In this document: in pieces, positions 55,750 through 63,867 of the stretch
Layout of the letters: each line of letters starts with the position of its first letter
How positions within the stretch are numbered: the stretch's first letter is position 1
Assembly: GCA_902774055.1 (NCBI GenBank)
Contig: CACYGX010000004.1
Coordinates: 49,271-113,270 of the forward strand
DNA length: 64,000 bases
Origin: an uncultured Bacteroidales bacterium
GTDB taxonomy: Bacteria; Bacteroidota; Bacteroidia; Bacteroidales; Muribaculaceae
Direction of reading: 5' to 3'
Program-made: the position numbers and the translations under genes
Notes under the pieces: generated by a model
The model's input: the letters and a program-made list of their open reading frames with translations, nothing else
Databases searched by the model: none
What the model was told of the DNA's origin: nothing

Positions 55750-55823
55750 GGTCCTGTAGCTCAGCTGGATAGAGCAACAGCCTTCTAAGCTGTGGGCCCT
55801 GGGTTCGAATCCCAGCAGGATCA
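55750..55823 (+). tRNA. tRNA-Arg (anticodon UCU)
   Basis: 74 nt. Acceptor GGTCCTG/CAGGATC with one G-U; anticodon stem ACAGC/GCTGT around CTTCTAA (UCU); discriminator A; no encoded CCA. It borders the accessory island, so is the likely integration site. Confidence 0.97.
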
Positions 55824-55835
55824 CGCTTCCAATTC

Positions 55836-56443: not shown

Positions 56444-57547
56444 TTATCTCCTAATTACTTTACAACCATAAGGAATTGCATCATATCCAATTTCATTTAC
56501 ACTCTTAGGTATGACTATACTTTTCAAATTCTGACATCCTTCGAACGCTCTGCCACCTATTTCGTTAACAGATTCAGGAATAACTACATTCATCAAGTTA
56601 ATACAATTAGTAAACGCATTATCTCCGATACGGGTGATGGAATGCGGAATGACTATATTTCTTAAGCCCCTACATCCATAAAATGCATTCCATCCTATTT
56701 CAGTGACAGATTCTGGAATCACTGTGTTGCTGCAACCTTGAATCAAAATATTCTTTGATGTTTGAATAATCGCATTACAGTTATTTCGGGAGTCATACAC
56801 CTTATTATCTTTGGCAACTTCTATTCTCTCTAAATTACTACATCTCAAGAATGCATATTCACGAATTTCGTTAACCGATTCTGGTATAAAAATAGCCTTA
56901 AGGTTGCAACATCCTTGAAAAACTGAAGGATTTATTCTTGAAATAGTATTTGGTATCTCGACTCTTGATAAGCCGACACATCCTTCGAATGCTGAAAAGC
57001 CAATATCAGTGATGGTTTTCGGTATTATTATTTCAGTTAAATCTAGGCATCCCCAAAATGCTGCATAATCGATAACTGAGACAGAATTGGGAAAAGTAGT
57101 GCTCTTACATCCAAGAATCAATTTATTAGTATTTGTCTCAATAATGGCATTACAATTCTCGCGGCTGTCATATCTTCTATTTCCTTTTGCCACATTGATT
57201 GTCTCTAGCGCAGCACAATCAGCAAAAGCCATTCCGTCGATATCTGATATAGTCTCAATAATAAACAAATTGTTTAAACGCTGGCCACGGAAAGCTTCTT
57301 TGCCAATTCTAACTACAGATTCAGGAATTATTGTTTCTTTGCATCCAGTAACAAGAGTATTTGTGTCTGTCTCTATAATGGCATTACAATTCTCGCGGCT
57401 ATCATATCTTCTATTTCCCTCAGCGACACTAATTGCCTCAAGCGCAGTACAACCTGCGAATGCTGAGGCATACAACGATGTGACATTCATTGGTAAATCT
57501 ATGCTTATTAATTTACTACACTTATAGTATCTGTAACTTATTGTATT
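56444..57547 (-). pseudogene. 5'-truncated BspA-type LRR protein gene
   Basis: From the first ATG (57490) the frame encodes 348 aa of LRR_5 repeats (AFAGCTALEAISVAEGNR, AFRGQRLNNLFII, AFEGCVGLSRVEIPN) with a recurring insert YDSRENCNAII. The frame stays open upstream to a stop at 57548, and those 19 codons still encode an LRR unit (YYKCSKLISIDLP) with no ATG/GTG/TTG, signal peptide or promoter. The gene has therefore lost its 5' end. The remaining protein could only be cytoplasmic, whereas complete homologues are secreted adhesin-like proteins. Confidence 0.65.
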
Positions 57548-57952: not shown

Positions 57953-58255
57953 TCACCAAAGGATTACACTTGGGTCTGTCGCAGATACCAATGGTCCTCT
58001 AACTGTGAAGTGTGCTCCAAACTGGCAGTTGCATTTATGACAAAGTGGCACAATGTACCAGTGGTTGTCATTAGGGGCGTCTAATTGAACATGTGCACCA
58101 TCTGTTGCTTTAGCTAGCAGTTGGGGACAATCAACTCTGTGACACCAATTGGCTTTCATTCCAGTTGCTTTTTCCCAGTAATCCAACCATGATGAATAAC
58201 CGACAGGGGCTGGCCTTGCTCCCTCTCCTAAATTATGAACCGTGAACAAACTCAT
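57953..58255 (-). CDS. HNH-like zinc-finger protein
   Basis: 100 aa. WCHRVDCPQ, DGAHVQLD and WYIVPLCHKCN give the Cys-Cys, AHV and PLCxxCN pattern of a minimal HNH/treble-clef Zn fold; a full catalytic HNH cannot be confirmed by eye. A nuclease or nucleic-acid-binding role is plausible. Downstream of the DUF2188 gene on the same strand, sharing its terminator. No signal peptide. Confidence 0.6.
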   Translation of the reverse strand: MSLFTVHNLGEGARPAPVGYSSWLDYWEKATGMKANWCHRVDCPQLLAKATDGAHVQLDAPNDNHWYIVPLCHKCNCQFGAHFTVRGPLVSATDPSVILW

Positions 58256-58344
58256 AAATTTTTATTCTAAAGTTATTGTACTTTACTACATCCTGTCCCT
58301 GTAGTATTAGGACTCCTCACTAAGCGGAGAGAATGCTGAGGAAC

Positions 58345-58566
58345 TTATCCTCTTGGAGGAAATGGGTCTTTTCCATGAGAATCCCTTTCTCGAATCTGGC
58401 CATTGCGACCATGAATGAAAAGTTCGGAATTCTGGTTTCTTGTTATTTGCCGAGCAGCGGCAATTGCATCAGACTGCCTATCAAATGTTGATGTAAGTCT
58501 CGAATTGCCCTCACCTCTGATACCCCATCTTCCTCCTGTTGGAACGACATGTTGGTTCTTACCCAT
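58345..58566 (-). CDS. DUF2188-family small protein
   Basis: 73 aa. KNQHVVPTGGRWGIRGEGNS, DRQSDAIAAARQITRNQNSE and IHGRNGQIRERDSHGKDPFP match the DUF2188 pattern (phage- and plasmid-associated; function unknown). It is preceded by a near-perfect Shine-Dalgarno sequence, atypical of Bacteroidota. Divergent from rloA across a 236-bp control region. Confidence 0.8.
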   Translation of the reverse strand: MGKNQHVVPTGGRWGIRGEGNSRLTSTFDRQSDAIAAARQITRNQNSELFIHGRNGQIRERDSHGKDPFPPRG

Positions 58567-58572
58567 CTGTTA

Positions 58573-58582
58573 CACCTCCTTT
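58573..58582 (-). promoter_or_regulatory. Strong Shine-Dalgarno AAAGGAGGTG
   Basis: On the minus strand AAAGGAGGTG lies 6 nt before the DUF2188 ATG (58566), fully complementary to the canonical anti-SD. None of the core genes inspected here has one. Confidence 0.75.
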
Positions 58583-58643
58583 CTGCGCCCTGTTTTGACA
58601 TATATGCCATAGCACACTTTATCTCCAACAAAAATCGTGCCAT

Positions 58644-58659
58644 TGTCATATAAATGACA
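58644..58659. promoter_or_regulatory. Operator-like inverted repeat TGTCAT-ATAA-ATGACA
   Basis: Perfect 6-bp inverted repeat with a 4-nt centre, in the divergent rloA/DUF2188 spacer; same half-site as 58692-58715 in the opposite arrangement. Confidence 0.6.
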
Positions 58660-58691
58660 CAACGTCGTTAAGAAGCGACAAAAATTACATA

Positions 58692-58715
58692 ATACATGAC
58701 AAAAATGTCATGTAT
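58692..58715. promoter_or_regulatory. Operator-like inverted repeat ATACATGACA-AAAA-TGTCATGTAT
   Basis: Perfect 10-bp inverted repeat with a 4-nt centre, 45 bp upstream of the rloA -7 box. Its centre is 52 bp (about five helical turns) from that of the repeat at 58644. Confidence 0.7.
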
Positions 58716-58760
58716 CAACAAATTAACCAATAAAATGTGACGATTTTTGAAATTTGTTAT

Positions 58761-58768
58761 TATCTTTG
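58761..58768 (+). promoter_or_regulatory. -7 box TATCTTTG for rloA-rloB
   Basis: TATCTTTG, 34 nt before the rloA ATG at 58803. Confidence 0.65.
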
Positions 58769-58802
58769 CAGCGAATATTCACACAATATCAAGATTAGCC
58801 AT

Positions 58803-60146
58803 ATGTTATTATCTGCCAAATTTGAAAACATTTACTCGTTCAACGAGGAAACTCGCATCTTGTTCACGGCCAGCAAGAGCGATCAATTGCCAATGCATGT
58901 TTCACGCGCGGAGAAACGAGATGACATCTCGGTGCTTCGTATGGGATTGATTTATGGTGCCAATGCTTCTGGGAAGTCTAATATCATAAAGTGCCTGGCC
59001 ATTATTAAGGCCTTTGCTCTGAATGGTTGGAGCAACCGCAAGTACAACTATTTTAAAATGACGGACGAGCCGCAGGAGAGGTCGAGCATCGAATTGGAGT
59101 TTAAAGTGTCTGGTCAGTTCTTTGCTTATGGTGTCGCGTTCTCGAAGGGAGGCTTATTAGAAGAGTGGTTGTACAAGACCGGAAGCCGTAATGATGCAAT
59201 GATCTTTGAACGCAAACGTTCTGGTGATGTCTGGGAAAATGTGATAGCGCCACAATTTACGAAGGAAGAAGATGGGCAATTTTTGAAGTTTTTGATTGAT
59301 GGTACCCCAACGAAGGGCACTTTTTTAAGTGAGTACATTGAGCGCAATGGAAAAGGAATCGAAGCCATAAAGTTGGCGAGAAAGTGGTTTGAAAATTTGA
59401 ATATTATCTTCCCGGAAACGCACAGAACTGACTTTCCTTTCAGAGTAGTGGGCGATACTCAGTTCAGAACTGTAATGCGTGAACTGCTTGGATATTTTGG
59501 TACGGGTATCTCAGATCTTTGTCGTGTTGAATCGAAGCCCGAAGAACTGGGCATCCCTGACGAAATAAGACAGAAAATTGAAGAAATTCTTGAAAGTAAG
59601 GGAGCAAAAACTGGTATAATGATTCACAACGAGAGTCGTTTTATCTTTGCAGAAAAGGATGAGTCGAGAAATATGAAATGGTATGAGTTGAAAACTATCC
59701 ACAAGAAGGAAGACAGTGATTCGGATTATATATTTGAGATGTTTGAAGAGTCTGATGGAACTTCACGCCTGTTTGACTTCATACCAATGCTTATTGATAT
59801 GCGTGCTAACGACGCAGTCTATGTTGTTGACGAGATAGACAGGAGCCTGCATCCCATGCTGACATTGAAGTTGTTGGAGATGTACGATAGTCTGCTTCGA
59901 GGAGATTCGCATATGCAGTTGATATGCACAACCCATGAGTCAAGCCTGCTTTCTACTGCTCCCATCCGTCAAGACGAGGTATGGTTTGTTGAAAAGGATA
60001 AAAAAGGAGAAAGTCATTTATCTTCGCTCTGTGAATACAAACCAAGAGAGAATGTACAGAAAGGTTATCTAAATGGTCGCTACGGTGCGATTCCGTTTTT
60101 TGGTGAGTTGGACAATATTCATTGGGACGATGCGAAACAGGAATAG
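58803..60146 (+). CDS. rloA: AAA15-family ATPase, RloA/AbiLi-like
   Basis: 447 aa from the ATG at 58803 (MLLSAKFENIYSFNEE); upstream in-frame codons run into the promoter. Walker A GLIYGANASGKSN (near residues 53-65), Walker B DAVYVVDEIDRSLHP, and the following THESSLLS are typical of the SMC/ABC-like AAA15 ATPases of abortive-infection systems. It overlaps rloB by 17 nt. By family, ATPase sensing or gating of the RloB effector during phage attack; inferred, not shown. Confidence 0.88.
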   Translation: MLLSAKFENIYSFNEETRILFTASKSDQLPMHVSRAEKRDDISVLRMGLIYGANASGKSNIIKCLAIIKAFALNGWSNRKYNYFKMTDEPQERSSIELEFKVSGQFFAYGVAFSKGGLLEEWLYKTGSRNDAMIFERKRSGDVWENVIAPQFTKEEDGQFLKFLIDGTPTKGTFLSEYIERNGKGIEAIKLARKWFENLNIIFPETHRTDFPFRVVGDTQFRTVMRELLGYFGTGISDLCRVESKPEELGIPDEIRQKIEEILESKGAKTGIMIHNESRFIFAEKDESRNMKWYELKTIHKKEDSDSDYIFEMFEESDGTSRLFDFIPMLIDMRANDAVYVVDEIDRSLHPMLTLKLLEMYDSLLRGDSHMQLICTTHESSLLSTAPIRQDEVWFVEKDKKGESHLSSLCEYKPRENVQKGYLNGRYGAIPFFGELDNIHWDDAKQE

Positions 60147-60792
60147 TTTGATACGCGAACGTCGTGAGGCATTTCGTGACGCCCGCCTGATAGTCATAGC
60201 CTCTGAGGGCAAAGACACCGAACGAATATATTTCAAAGCCTTGGCAAAAGAATATACCAACCCTCGCGTGCATGTACATATATTAGAAAGGAGTGAAAAT
60301 GAACAGAACAACTCCAGTCCAGAGCATGTATTGAAGCAACTTAACGATTATAAAGGGCAGTATGCACTGGAGTCTGATGATGAGCTCTGGTTGGTGGTAG
60401 ATAGAGATCGTTGGACCGAAGCGATGCTGTCGCGTGTTGCCATGGAATGTGCCCAGGATGAGTTTATGCATGTAGCCCTGAGTAATCCTTGCATCGAGCT
60501 TTGGCTGTTGCTGCATCTGGTGGATGCTTCTTTGCTTGCACCGGAGGAGCAACAACTATGGATGGAGAATCGCCGAAGGACGAAGAGTGCAGATCCATAT
60601 CTAAAGATTCGGTTGCGTCAGGAGATGGGTTCCTATCATGAGTCATCATATGATGCTCAAATGCTGATAGAGCATGTAGAGACCGCAATAGAGCGAGCAA
60701 GAGCGTTGGATAAGAATTCCACTGACCGTTGGCCACAAACTCTCGGTACACGAGTGTATCTGCTGGCAGAAAGTGTGATGAACAGGAATTAA
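60130..60792 (+). CDS. rloB: RloB/AbiLii-like effector
   Basis: 220 aa from the ATG at 60130. IASEGKDTERIYFKAL near the start is the conserved TOPRIM-like acidic motif, with DDELWLVVDRDRW and NPCIELWLLLHL completing the RloB pattern. Members pair with AAA15 ATPases (RloA, AbiLi); nuclease activity is suspected from the TOPRIM-like fold. Overlaps rloA by 17 nt. Confidence 0.88.
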   Translation: MRNRNSLIRERREAFRDARLIVIASEGKDTERIYFKALAKEYTNPRVHVHILERSENEQNNSSPEHVLKQLNDYKGQYALESDDELWLVVDRDRWTEAMLSRVAMECAQDEFMHVALSNPCIELWLLLHLVDASLLAPEEQQLWMENRRRTKSADPYLKIRLRQEMGSYHESSYDAQMLIEHVETAIERARALDKNSTDRWPQTLGTRVYLLAESVMNRN

Positions 60793-60851
60793 TATCTTGA
60801 TGTTCTTCCACGATATCTCACATTTTTACTAAAATCAGAATCCGTTGTTCA

Positions 60852-61061
60852 ATGACCAGAACAGATGAGCAGAGTGTCGGAACGATAGATTTCTTCATTA
60901 AGTGCAAAAGACTTCATAGTTACTTTGAGCGAAATGCTGGTAGCTTTGAAAAGGCGATGGTTAATGCCGATAGATCAATGGAAGAGAAACTTTCTTCGGG
61001 AAGGAATTATACCTTCTTGGAACTCGCTAGGCTGATGGGAGAACATAAGAAGTTAGAATGA
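60852..61061 (+). CDS. Small hypothetical protein of the defence cluster
   Basis: 69 aa: charged, helical (KRLHSYFERNAGSFEKAMVN), no recognised domain. Same strand, 59 nt after rloB and before the SEFIR gene. Could be a regulator or a remnant; weak support. Confidence 0.4.
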   Translation: MTRTDEQSVGTIDFFIKCKRLHSYFERNAGSFEKAMVNADRSMEEKLSSGRNYTFLELARLMGEHKKLE

Positions 61062-61184
61062 CAAGTTATAAAACAAATTATATCACCAGTAAGTGTTGGC
61101 ATATAGATGTAAATATCATCATTTGACGATTGGGCCTTTGTGAGGATCGTAAACTCGCGCGAAACTTATTATATTAAAATAATA

Positions 61185-62642
61185 ATGGAAAATCCAAAAG
61201 TTTTTATATCATATAGTTGGACAACACCTGAACATGAACAAAGGGTGTTGAATATTGCGACGGAACTTGTTGAGAGTGGTATTGATGTGATTCTAGACAA
61301 ATGGGACCTGAAAGAAGGGGATGATGCAGATGTGTTCATGGAACAAATGGTGTCGGATCCTTCAATTCAGAAGGTTCTGATAATCTGTGATAAAATGTAC
61401 TCCGAGAAGTCTGACAAGCGTAAAGGTGGTGCTGGCACGGAGGCGCAGATTATATCAAGAAGGGTCTATGAGCAGCAGAGTAATGAGAACAAATTCGTTG
61501 TTGCTGCATTTGAGGTGAACGAAGATACAGGCAAACCTTACCTGCCAGTTTACTATGGCTCGCGTAAGTACATAGACTTCACCGACCCAAACAAGTATGC
61601 ACAGAAGATTGAGGAGCTTGTTCGATGGATATATAACAAGCCTTTGTTTGTGAAACCAAAATTGGGACGTGTGCCTGATTACATCCTTGCTGATAACAAG
61701 AAAACATTAGGAACAACAGCCTCATATAGAAGAGCTATCTCTTTTGTTGTAGAAGGTAGGATGAATGCTGCAGGTGCTGTTCGGGAATATTTGGACACAT
61801 TCTCTGAGAATCTCCAATCTTTTCAACTACCTTCATGTGATAATCATTCAGATTACTATGATCAATTTATAACGAGCATAAAGGATTTTGTGCCTTATCG
61901 TGATGAGTGGCTAGAGTTACTGAAAAATGTATGTAGGAATGACTTGATAGAAGCAACCTTTGATAGTTATATGCGTTTCTTCGAGAGTATTCATCTTTAT
62001 ACAAAGGTGAGACGCGAAGTGACGTATGTGTATCAAGAGGAAGAGGATAATATGAAGTTTATTGAATATGAGCTAATGTTATGTTTCATCGCTATTCTTC
62101 TCAAAAACGAATGCTTTGTTGCGGTAGCAGACCTGTTTAACACGTCATTTTATAACGAACTGGGTAATACGGAGTATGATGCTACCTATACCTACAGAGA
62201 GTTTGAACACTTTCTGTACACTACATATAACGAAAATCAGTATGCTTCGCAGCGCTACTATTCATTACAAGCAAAAATTGTTAATGATAGGATGGAATCA
62301 TGTCCAGCCCTTTCGATGGAAAATATTTGTCAGGCTGATTTCGTGGCGTGGTTGTATCATCTCGCGCATAAGCCTGATGAGAGCAGGTTTAGCCGTTGGT
62401 TCCCCCATAGTATACTATATGCCTGTAATCAGAGACGTCCATTTGAGATATTTGCGCGTGCCGAATCAAACAACTATCTGGACAGGATAAAGGTGATTTT
62501 CGGATATGATGGTCTTGATGACTTCAAAACATTGTATGCTTACATTAAGCAAAATGCGCAGAGTATAGTACCACGATGGGAGTTTGAATCACCTAATGTC
62601 AAACTTCTGATGAATGTGGAGAAGTTGGGATTAAAGAAGTAA
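61185..62642 (+). CDS. SEFIR-domain (TIR-like) immune protein
   Basis: 485 aa from the ATG at 61185 (MENPKVFISYSWTTPEHEQ). Residues about 4-140 form a SEFIR domain: FISYSW, LVESGIDVILDKWDLKEGDD, QKVLIICDKMYSEK and GAGTEAQII. Bacterial SEFIR/TIR proteins act as phage-triggered NAD-depleting effectors; that activity is inferred here. Residues 200-485 are a helical region with no recognised domain, probably the sensor. Located directly after rloAB. AT-rich coding compared with the core genes. Confidence 0.82.
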   Translation: MENPKVFISYSWTTPEHEQRVLNIATELVESGIDVILDKWDLKEGDDADVFMEQMVSDPSIQKVLIICDKMYSEKSDKRKGGAGTEAQIISRRVYEQQSNENKFVVAAFEVNEDTGKPYLPVYYGSRKYIDFTDPNKYAQKIEELVRWIYNKPLFVKPKLGRVPDYILADNKKTLGTTASYRRAISFVVEGRMNAAGAVREYLDTFSENLQSFQLPSCDNHSDYYDQFITSIKDFVPYRDEWLELLKNVCRNDLIEATFDSYMRFFESIHLYTKVRREVTYVYQEEEDNMKFIEYELMLCFIAILLKNECFVAVADLFNTSFYNELGNTEYDATYTYREFEHFLYTTYNENQYASQRYYSLQAKIVNDRMESCPALSMENICQADFVAWLYHLAHKPDESRFSRWFPHSILYACNQRRPFEIFARAESNNYLDRIKVIFGYDGLDDFKTLYAYIKQNAQSIVPRWEFESPNVKLLMNVEKLGLKK

Positions 62643-63699: not shown

Positions 63700-63867
63700 A
63701 TGTACAATTTTTTCCGATGCAAAGTTAGTGCGGGCCGCTGCGACTACAAGACCGTGAGCGTCATATTGGGCCACGCCAACATCGGCACGACGCTCGATCT
63801 CTATGTCCATCCCAACCTGGAACAGAAACAGAAGTGCATCAACCGCATGTTCAAATCCCTCCGTTGA
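63700..63867 (+). pseudogene. Tyrosine recombinase C-terminal fragment
   Basis: Codons 63742-63867 encode DYKTVSVILGHANIGTTLDLYVHP and the downstream QKCINRMFKSL (described in parts), the C-terminal box of phage-type integrases with the conserved LGH and the nucleophile Tyr. The catalytic Arg region and the rest of the enzyme are absent; upstream sequence is unrelated. Remnant of an integrase, marking mobility of the region. Confidence 0.8.

What the first reader, a model, noticed from the sequence alone, without database searches (positions are those of the whole stretch)
58345..62642. Compact defence cluster: DUF2188 + HNH-like protein divergent from RloAB, followed by a SEFIR protein
rloA-rloB (AAA15 ATPase plus RloB, the AbiL/RloAB type) overlap by 17 nt; a SEFIR-domain protein follows on the same strand; and a divergent unit encodes a DUF2188 protein and an HNH-like Zn protein. 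RloAB and SEFIR proteins are each linked to anti-phage defence. The pairing with DUF2188/HNH across a shared operator region is not one I recognise and could be a regulated composite system.
Basis: partly seen in the sequence, partly recalled or inferred. Interest (0 to 1): 0.75.

Follow-up and report, generated by a model that had tools for sequence, protein, structure and literature searches.

The report
Inducible zinc-protein cassette beside AbiL genes
A bacterial anti-virus gene pair of a known type (AbiL) sits back to back with a small portable unit, made of a DUF2188 gene and a gene for an unknown zinc protein, whose relatives recur beside the same kind of defence gene and share a control region that looks switchable; the neighbouring SEFIR defence gene appears to be a separate system.

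Summary
All the genes described are present; the HNH-like gene (57953-58255) lies just outside the given interval. RloA-RloB is an AbiL-type pair (17-nt overlap); the downstream protein is a bSEFIR. The hunch of a composite unit is partly right. Relatives of the HNH-like protein are rare (9 of 393 genomes of the order), yet 3 of those 9 adjoin an RloA-type AAA gene, and 24 of 80 loci fetched with it do (21 head to head). DUF2188 accompanies it in 11 of 80 but is promiscuous. SEFIR is gained independently. TGACA/TGTCA boxes are fivefold enriched in 23 divergent regions (84 against 16.3), not enriched at 53 RloA genes without HNH, and tied to sigma54-like elements (25 of 26 loci against 12 of 46). 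The control region thus travels with the HNH/DUF2188 unit, which looks like a portable, activator-driven accessory docked onto AAA defence genes. In some relatives a covarying pseudoknotted RNA leader precedes HNH; it was not found in the window. What the HNH-like protein does is inferred; its HNH fold is not confirmed.

The parts
57953..58255 (-). HNH-like small putative Zn protein (100 aa), pattern CHRVDC...DGAHV...PLCHKCN
   Evidence: no family hit; in 83 aligned family members C43, G53, H55, V56, P70, C72, N76 are in 83 of 83; AlphaFold mean pLDDT 91.6
58256..58344 (-). DUF2188-HNH intergenic stretch, conserved between loci (6-12% differences from the window)
   Evidence: a pseudoknot-like reading is possible by eye, no covariation shown
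58345..58566 (-). DUF2188 protein (73 aa), PADLOC candidate PDC-S16
58596..58600 (.). TGACA box between the -12 element and the DUF2188 start
58627..58642 (-). sigma54-like -24/-12 element TGGCACGATTTTTGTT, 60 nt before the DUF2188 start
   Evidence: 10 of 11 positions of a recalled consensus; 30 of 1000 shuffles reach it; elements of another spelling at 62 nt in L083, L085 and G098
58644..58659 (.). inverted TGTCA/TGACA pair upstream of the -24 element
58692..58715 (.). inverted repeat, 10-nt perfect arms around AAAA, holding two further boxes (58697-58701, 58706-58710)
58803..60146 (+). rloA, AAA ATPase of AbiLi type (447 aa from this ATG)
60130..60792 (+). rloB, RloB/AbiLii protein (220 aa)
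   Evidence: relation of RloB to OLD_TOPRIM from PMC10440598, passages
60852..61061 (+). 69-aa ORF, no family, may be spurious
61188..62642 (+). SEFIR protein (bSEFIR, 484 aa), taken as a separate system

Best explanation
An AbiL-type abortive-infection pair (AAA sensor RloA holding the effector RloB) stands head to head with a portable and inducible accessory cassette. The cassette is: TGACA/TGTCA activator boxes, a sigma54-like promoter, DUF2188, and the HNH-like Zn protein. Shown here: the repeated docking of the HNH family beside AAA genes, exchange of parts of the cassette between loci, and that boxes and promoter go with the HNH/DUF2188 unit and not with the AAA gene. Inferred: an enhancer-binding activator on the boxes switches the cassette on under stress or infection; the HNH-like protein binds or cuts nucleic acid as a second effector or modulator working with the AAA protein; RloB cuts RNA, as AriB of PARIS cuts tRNA. 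SEFIR is an independent neighbour in the same island.
For: HNH-AAA adjacency in 24 of 80 loci, 21 divergent, in three main parts of the HNH tree as I read it; the AAA label needs 7 changes against 20.8 in shuffles. Even sample: 3 of 9 HNH genomes, with RloA in 132 of 393 genomes. TGACA/TGTCA: 84 observed, 16.3 expected in 23 divergent regions, the most over-represented pentamer; RloA without HNH 27 against 25.4 (53 regions), HNH without AAA, CapHP or DUF2188 48 against 21.5 (45 regions). At least two boxes in 25 of 26 loci with a sigma54-like element, in 12 of 46 without (Fisher 2.6e-9; 17 of 18 against 8 of 36 after an 85% identity filter, 3.3e-7; 9 of 10 against 6 of 33 among those without AAA, 7.5e-5). 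rpoN in the genome, E 2.1e-45. Portability: L086 (G083) carries a 94% identical DUF2188 and an 89% identical HNH protein behind another AAA gene, with unrelated upstream DNA; window against L083 differs at 12% of fourfold sites in HNH but 41% in DUF2188.
Against: 56 of 80 fetched HNH loci have no adjacent RloA-type gene, 47 of them none of the linked classes, so the HNH gene does not need the AAA gene. Most RloA genes lack it: HNH in 2 of 30 order-level loci (L166, L167) and 1 of 29 genus-level loci (L036) examined. One of the three adjacent copies in the even sample (G324) is cut to 40 aa. G098 keeps boxes and promoter-like element with DUF2188 but has no HNH, so the signature is not strictly HNH's. 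Three HNH genes behind an AAA gene on the same strand have no box, and within AAA loci alone the box-promoter link is not significant (8 of 8 against 2 of 3, p 0.27). Fold search finds no relative (best E 4.5), and Tyr stands where HNH nucleases have the middle Asn (recalled). The window's sigma54-like element alone is weak (30 of 1000 shuffles). No activator gene was noticed in the locus and none was sought in the genome.
Confidence: 0.42

Rival explanations
1. The HNH-like protein and/or DUF2188 is the transcription regulator of the divergent AAA(-RloB) operon: a portable regulatory unit that binds the TGACA/TGTCA boxes, in the manner of CapH/CapP for CBASS (recalled).
For: Divergent placement, shared boxes and inverted repeats; small Zn-type protein; boxes also upstream of HNH genes without AAA, as an autoregulator would have.
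Against: Boxes follow the sigma54-like element more than the protein: 12 of 46 HNH loci without the element have at least two, against 25 of 26 with it; HNH genes next to CapHP-type genes have none above chance (5 against 3.6 in 7 regions). The HNH gene can lie behind the AAA gene on the same strand (L086, L115, L117).
Confidence: 0.22
2. Septu-like pair: the AAA protein is the sensor and the HNH-like protein its nuclease effector, RloB being a second or alternative effector.
For: AAA with HNH partners are described in PMC10440598 (passages); in L125, L141, L153, L156 and L157 no RloB-cluster gene follows the AAA gene, which is divergent from HNH and DUF2188; His55 and Asn76 in 83 of 83.
Against: PtuA equivalog score 27.7 against a cut-off of 500; no PtuB hit for the HNH protein; middle HNH Asn missing; 56 of 80 HNH genes have no adjacent RloA-type AAA.
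Confidence: 0.18
3. Defence-island coincidence: unrelated cargo genes collected behind a tRNA-Arg integration hotspot.
For: The cluster lies downstream of tRNA-Arg; of 22 other genus loci with at least 480 nt readable behind that tRNA, 6 begin with integrase-like ORFs (by eye); SEFIR is independent.
Against: It does not explain the head-to-head order in 21 of 80 loci, or at least two boxes within 260 nt upstream of the AAA gene in 20 of 21 such loci. It does hold for SEFIR.
Confidence: 0.13

Closest known systems
AbiL (AbiLi/AbiLii; RloA-RloB)
   Same: AAA plus RloB pair in an overlapping operon; PADLOC AbiLi and AbiLii models hit them
   Different: AbiL is described as bicistronic (PMC10440598, passage); here a divergent DUF2188-HNH unit with its own control signature is attached
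PARIS (AriA/AriB)
   Same: AAA plus TOPRIM architecture; RloA also matches AriA models; AriB is a tRNA nuclease (PMC12409363, abstract and passages)
   Different: RloB matches AbiLii and no AriB model at E 0.1
Septu (PtuA/PtuB)
   Same: AAA ATPase with a small HNH-type partner
   Different: PtuA cut-off missed by far, no PtuB model hit, mostly divergent and not co-directional
CapH/CapP-type portable regulators of immune operons (role recalled; listing only)
   Same: small unit at changing defence operons; HNH genes of this family occur beside genes of the clusters that hold CapH- and CapP-like proteins in 7 of 80 loci (models tested in L095 only)
   Different: no HTH or peptidase family found in DUF2188 or the HNH protein; role not shown

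Membership tests
AbiL / RloAB | AAA ATPase of AbiLi/RloA type | tested here: met
   AbiLi 1.6e-76, AAA_21 7.5e-26
AbiL / RloAB | RloB/AbiLii partner in the same operon | tested here: met
   PF13707 6.4e-35, AbiLii 2.5e-21, 17-nt overlap
AbiL / RloAB | abortive infection against phage | not testable with these tools
   needs plaque and survival assays
PARIS | AriB-type TOPRIM (DUF4435, recalled) | tested here: not met
   RloB hits only AbiLii in PADLOC and only PF13707 in Pfam
Septu | PtuA equivalog score | tested here: not met
   27.7 bits, cut-off 500
Septu | PtuB partner | tested here: not met
   no PADLOC hit at E 0.1 for the HNH protein
HNH endonuclease superfamily | sequence family match | tested here: not met
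   0 Pfam families for the window protein; of 59 relatives 2 match HNH_5 weakly, best 0.0073
HNH endonuclease superfamily | conserved His and Asn/His with a Cys4 treble clef | tested here: inconclusive
   H55 and N76 83 of 83, C43 and C72 83 of 83, C38 78, C75 81; middle Asn place is Tyr67 by my alignment to a recalled pattern; Foldseek pdb no match
bSEFIR | SEFIR domain and bSEFIR model | tested here: met
   PF08357 6.7e-18, bSEFIR 2.2e-100
sigma54-dependent operon | TGGCAC-N5-TTGCW element (recalled) and rpoN in the genome | tested here: inconclusive
   10 of 11 positions, similar place in 4 loci, 30 of 1000 shuffles reach it; rpoN present; promoter activity not testable

The most novel reading that the evidence does not exclude
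The HNH-like genes are a new class of inducible immune module: activator boxes, sigma54 promoter, and in part of the family a so far undescribed pseudoknotted RNA lying between the promoter and the HNH start codon. The RNA would sense the infection signal or act with the HNH protein (cis switch or RNA partner), and the whole cassette is plugged into AAA, AAA-RloB, protease or, without boxes, CapHP-type defence genes. The window holds a variant with DUF2188 between promoter and HNH.
Probability: 0.28. Interest if true: 0.82.

Novelty: new variant of a known kind. Interest (0 to 1): 0.58.

Why it matters
If right, it links an unannotated family of small Zn-type proteins to AAA/RloB abortive-infection genes through a shared, switchable control region, and suggests that sigma54 activators control some anti-phage genes in Bacteroidota. 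That is testable by transcript mapping with and without rpoN. It also gives DUF2188, a defence candidate without a known role, a recurrent partner.

Tried and rejected
DUF2188 as the fixed partner of RloAB: rejected, 1 of 22 order-level places and other neighbours on the two plasmids read. SEFIR as a part: rejected. HNH identity by fold: Foldseek pdb best E 4.5; a sequence profile against solved structures gave bL32m ribosomal proteins at E 0.26 or more and one HNH endonuclease at 0.96. DUF2188: best Foldseek match E 0.022 to a Cas1, TM 0.35, taken as no match; profile against solved structures one chain (8erw, 19 residues, E 0.0026), taken as chance. Rfam: in window 55500-64000 matches lay only at the two tRNA genes, none in the cluster; ten relatives' whole loci gave two tRNAs, a group II intron and an abiF RNA, none in a leader; leader of L166 three matches at E 0.78 or more, all below gathering score, of L156 none. 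RNA model R1 found nothing in 101 genus genomes under stricter filters, which the tool says shows little without a known positive, nor in the window with E up to 5. A pseudoknot search in single leaders beat all 12 shuffles in only 4 of 22, so the argument rests on the comparison between loci. MAFFT alignment A6 misplaces L101 and L103 in the stem, so column pair counts were not used; R1, built on it, is imperfect. Papers: DUF2188 in 7, none on defence by title, none read; a loose RloB/AbiL/phage search; PDC-S16 in 0; bSEFIR with phage defense 0; SEFIR listing of 17, none read; AbiL/RloB/HNH/TOPRIM combinations and HNH/AbiL/Septu/PARIS combinations gave listings of 2 and 4; HNH/sigma54/pseudoknot combination 0. 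PMC10440598 and PMC12409363 were seen as abstract start and passages only.
Full report
What is there. The window is the end of one contig of a 3.17 Mb genome in 54 contigs. RloA (58803-60146) and RloB (60130-60792) overlap by 17 nt, and both match AbiL models. A 69-aa ORF without family and a bSEFIR protein (61188-62642) follow.

Is the association real? I searched 101 genomes of the genus with four of the proteins: DUF2188 matched in 6, HNH in 5, SEFIR in 5 (4 over the whole length), RloA in 24 at any similarity, with three close copies (window, G098, G006). G098 and G006 have DUF2188 divergent from RloA and no HNH or SEFIR match; in G006 (72% complete) RloA is split over two contigs and DUF2188 has a stop inside. 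G048 has HNH and DUF2188, in the opposite order, divergent from a more distant RloA-type AAA of 432 aa. G083 has a different AAA followed on the same strand by DUF2188 and HNH. SEFIR relatives occur in G071, G078 and G095, none of which has an RloA match.

A wider scan with an alignment of seven HNH proteins found 115 relatives in genome contigs, of which the tool kept the best 80; one more came from viral contigs. My profile re-found the gene in 79 of the 80, so with the viral one 80 loci were classed (L157 and L082 were set by hand after reading them). 24 of 80 have an RloA-type AAA gene within 700 bases, 21 head to head and 3 on the same strand. In 11 of 80 a DUF2188 gene is beside HNH. Seven of 80 have genes of the clusters that hold CapH- and CapP-like proteins or the gene before them (for L095: CapP 7.8e-54, CapH 5.4e-5); that first gene looks sigma-like by eye but has no Pfam hit. 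47 of 80 have no gene of these classes. The ranking favours close relatives of the window. At 90% identity the loci form 62 HNH clusters, 15 of them with an AAA-adjacent member; at 70%, 5 of 41. In an even sample of 393 genomes of the order HNH was found in 9 and RloA in 132; 3 of the 9 HNH genes (window, G285, G324) adjoin RloA, that of G324 being cut to 40 aa. No background rate was computed; by guess (a few hundred RloA places in some 1.5 billion bases) a random gene would adjoin one far less than once in 1000. DUF2188, a defence-linked gene of similar size, adjoins RloA in 1 of 22 places in the same sample, some with short flanks. Conversely, of RloA loci examined, 2 of 30 at order level and 1 of 29 at genus level have HNH in the flank. 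On the HNH tree the AAA label needs 7 changes (20.8 in shuffles) and lies, as I read it, in three main parts; many forks are unresolved.

The types of docking. AAA followed by a gene of the RloB cluster, with divergent HNH: L088-L092, L097, L101, L103, L106, L108, L109 (Pfam RloB tested in L088, 1.2e-17). AAA not followed by such a gene, with divergent HNH-DUF2188: L125, L141, L153, L156, L157; L152 ends inside the AAA gene. AAA with divergent DUF2188-HNH: window, L083, L085, the last two ending inside the AAA gene. AAA with HNH and a trypsin-like protease (Trypsin_2 9.7e-9 in L115): L111, L115, L117. L086 (= G083) and L087 (two HNH genes in tandem) are further variants.

Parts of the cassette move. 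Between window and L083 the HNH gene differs at 12% of fourfold sites and the stretch before it at 7%, but DUF2188 at 41%; between window and L086 the DNA upstream of DUF2188 is unrelated (48% differences, 36 gaps) while the proteins are 94% and 89% identical.

The shared control region. In 23 divergent regions (21 loci, window, G098) TGACA/TGTCA occurs 84 times against 16.3 expected (200 dinucleotide-preserving shuffles, most 31), and TGACA is the most over-represented pentamer. Controls: 53 upstream regions of RloA genes without HNH, 27 against 25.4; 45 regions upstream of HNH genes without AAA, CapHP or DUF2188, 48 against 21.5; 7 CapHP-type HNH genes, 5 against 3.6; 3 HNH genes behind an AAA gene on the same strand, 0 against 1.4. 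So the boxes go with the HNH/DUF2188 unit and not with RloA; G098, with DUF2188 and no HNH, has three. They also go with a sigma54-like element (at least 9 of 11 consensus positions): 25 of 26 loci with it have at least two boxes, 12 of 46 without it; without AAA and after an 85% filter 9 of 10 against 6 of 33; within AAA loci 8 of 8 against 2 of 3, not significant (72 loci, L082-L086 and loci with under 200 nt upstream left out). In the 14 of 26 AAA loci that reach 9, the element lies 87-116 nt before the HNH start; 12 of 50 other loci reach 9. In the window it is at 58627-58642, 60 nt before DUF2188, and in L083, L085 and G098 a differently spelled element sits at 62 nt. Alone it is weak: 30 of 1000 shuffles reach its score. 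The genome encodes rpoN (Sigma54_DBD, 2.1e-45). The sigma54 consensus and the enhancer-binding activator are recalled knowledge.

An RNA leader in relatives. Between promoter and HNH start, several loci carry a leader in which a loop pairs with the seven bases before the anchor CTG[AT]ACT[AG]T. I saw this by eye first. To test it I took the 15 loci with the anchor (L109 dropped as a near copy) and compared pairing of own loop and own strand with swapped partners: 190 against a mean of 99.6 (most 172 of 20,000); with ten less similar loci 154 against 75.2 (most 137). Eight different loop sequences (L087, L093, L097, L101, L103, L106, L125, L166) pair at all seven places, G-U counted, for example CTTCAGC/GCTGAAG, CTCTTGC/GCAAGAG and CCCTGCT/AGCAGGG; L108 has a mismatch, and the five L141-type loci pair poorly (score 8). 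A covariance model from seven leaders, searched over 88 sources of 977 kb, gave hits with E under 0.01 only upstream of HNH genes, among them three loci not used in training: L093 1.9e-13, L087 2.8e-6, L126 0.0039. It found nothing in the window or in 101 genus genomes (stricter filters). Rfam gave nothing above chance for the leaders of L166 and L156. The window's own DUF2188-HNH stretch is well conserved but shows no covariation, so I do not claim the RNA there.

What the proteins may do. RloB and AbiL are described in PMC10440598 (passages), and AriB of PARIS cuts tRNA (PMC12409363, abstract and passages). By analogy RloA would hold RloB until phage is sensed; nothing here tests that. The HNH-like family keeps C43, G53, H55, V56, P70, C72 and N76 in 83 of 83 sequences and C75 in 81; AlphaFold gives a confident model (mean pLDDT 91.6), but Foldseek finds no relative in the PDB. 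The pattern fits a zinc treble clef with a His and an Asn in HNH-like places, the middle Asn being Tyr; whether it cuts is open. DUF2188 has a modest model (mean pLDDT 80.3) without a convincing match.

Verdict. Ordinary part: an AbiL-type pair beside an independent SEFIR gene downstream of a tRNA-Arg that serves as an integration hotspot in the genus. Unusual part: a portable HNH unit with a dedicated control region that repeatedly docks head to head onto AAA defence genes. I rate it a new variant of a known kind.

Noticed in passing
L087, L093, L097, L101, L103, L106, L108, L109, L126, L166, just upstream of the HNH start: Leader RNA with a covarying loop stem; Rfam gave nothing above chance in the one leader of this set searched at a lax threshold (L166). 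Not found in the window.
   Followed up: partly
L089, L090, L101, L103, between AAA and HNH: Inverted repeats of 46-48 nt with perfect arms of 21-24 nt in the divergent region.
   Followed up: no
window 55750-55824 and downstream; L248, L249, L251, L252, L261, L266: tRNA-Arg looks like an integration hotspot: 6 of 22 other genus loci with enough sequence have an integrase-like ORF right behind it (by eye).
   Followed up: partly
window 63700-63867: Short ORF that reads like the C-terminal end of a tyrosine recombinase, close to the contig end (by eye, not searched).
   Followed up: no
L163 176-3398 (G000 contig C25): The same genome has a second RloA-RloB pair, head to head with an HNH-SAVED protein (SAVED 1.2e-37, HNH 5.7e-5, RloB 7.9e-16).
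   Followed up: partly
L095, L099, L100, L102, L110, L131: HNH family genes divergent from a sigma-like gene (by eye), followed in L095, L100, L102 and L131 by genes of the CapH-like and CapP-like clusters.
   Followed up: partly
plasmids and phages collections: DUF2188 relatives on 499 plasmid records (387 at 60-80% identity; 342 of the 499 Klebsiella) and in 29 phage records (18 Streptococcus).
   Followed up: partly
L087 6618-7285: Two different HNH family genes in tandem, divergent from one AAA gene.
   Followed up: no
L111 7560-7596: abiF RNA (RF03085, above gathering score) next to the start of a 309-aa gene near the HNH locus.
   Followed up: no
window 56444-57490; L083, L084: BspA-type leucine-rich repeat gene downstream of HNH in the window (LRR_5 2.7e-64); genes of one repeat-protein cluster at the same place in L083 and L084 (by eye).
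   Followed up: no
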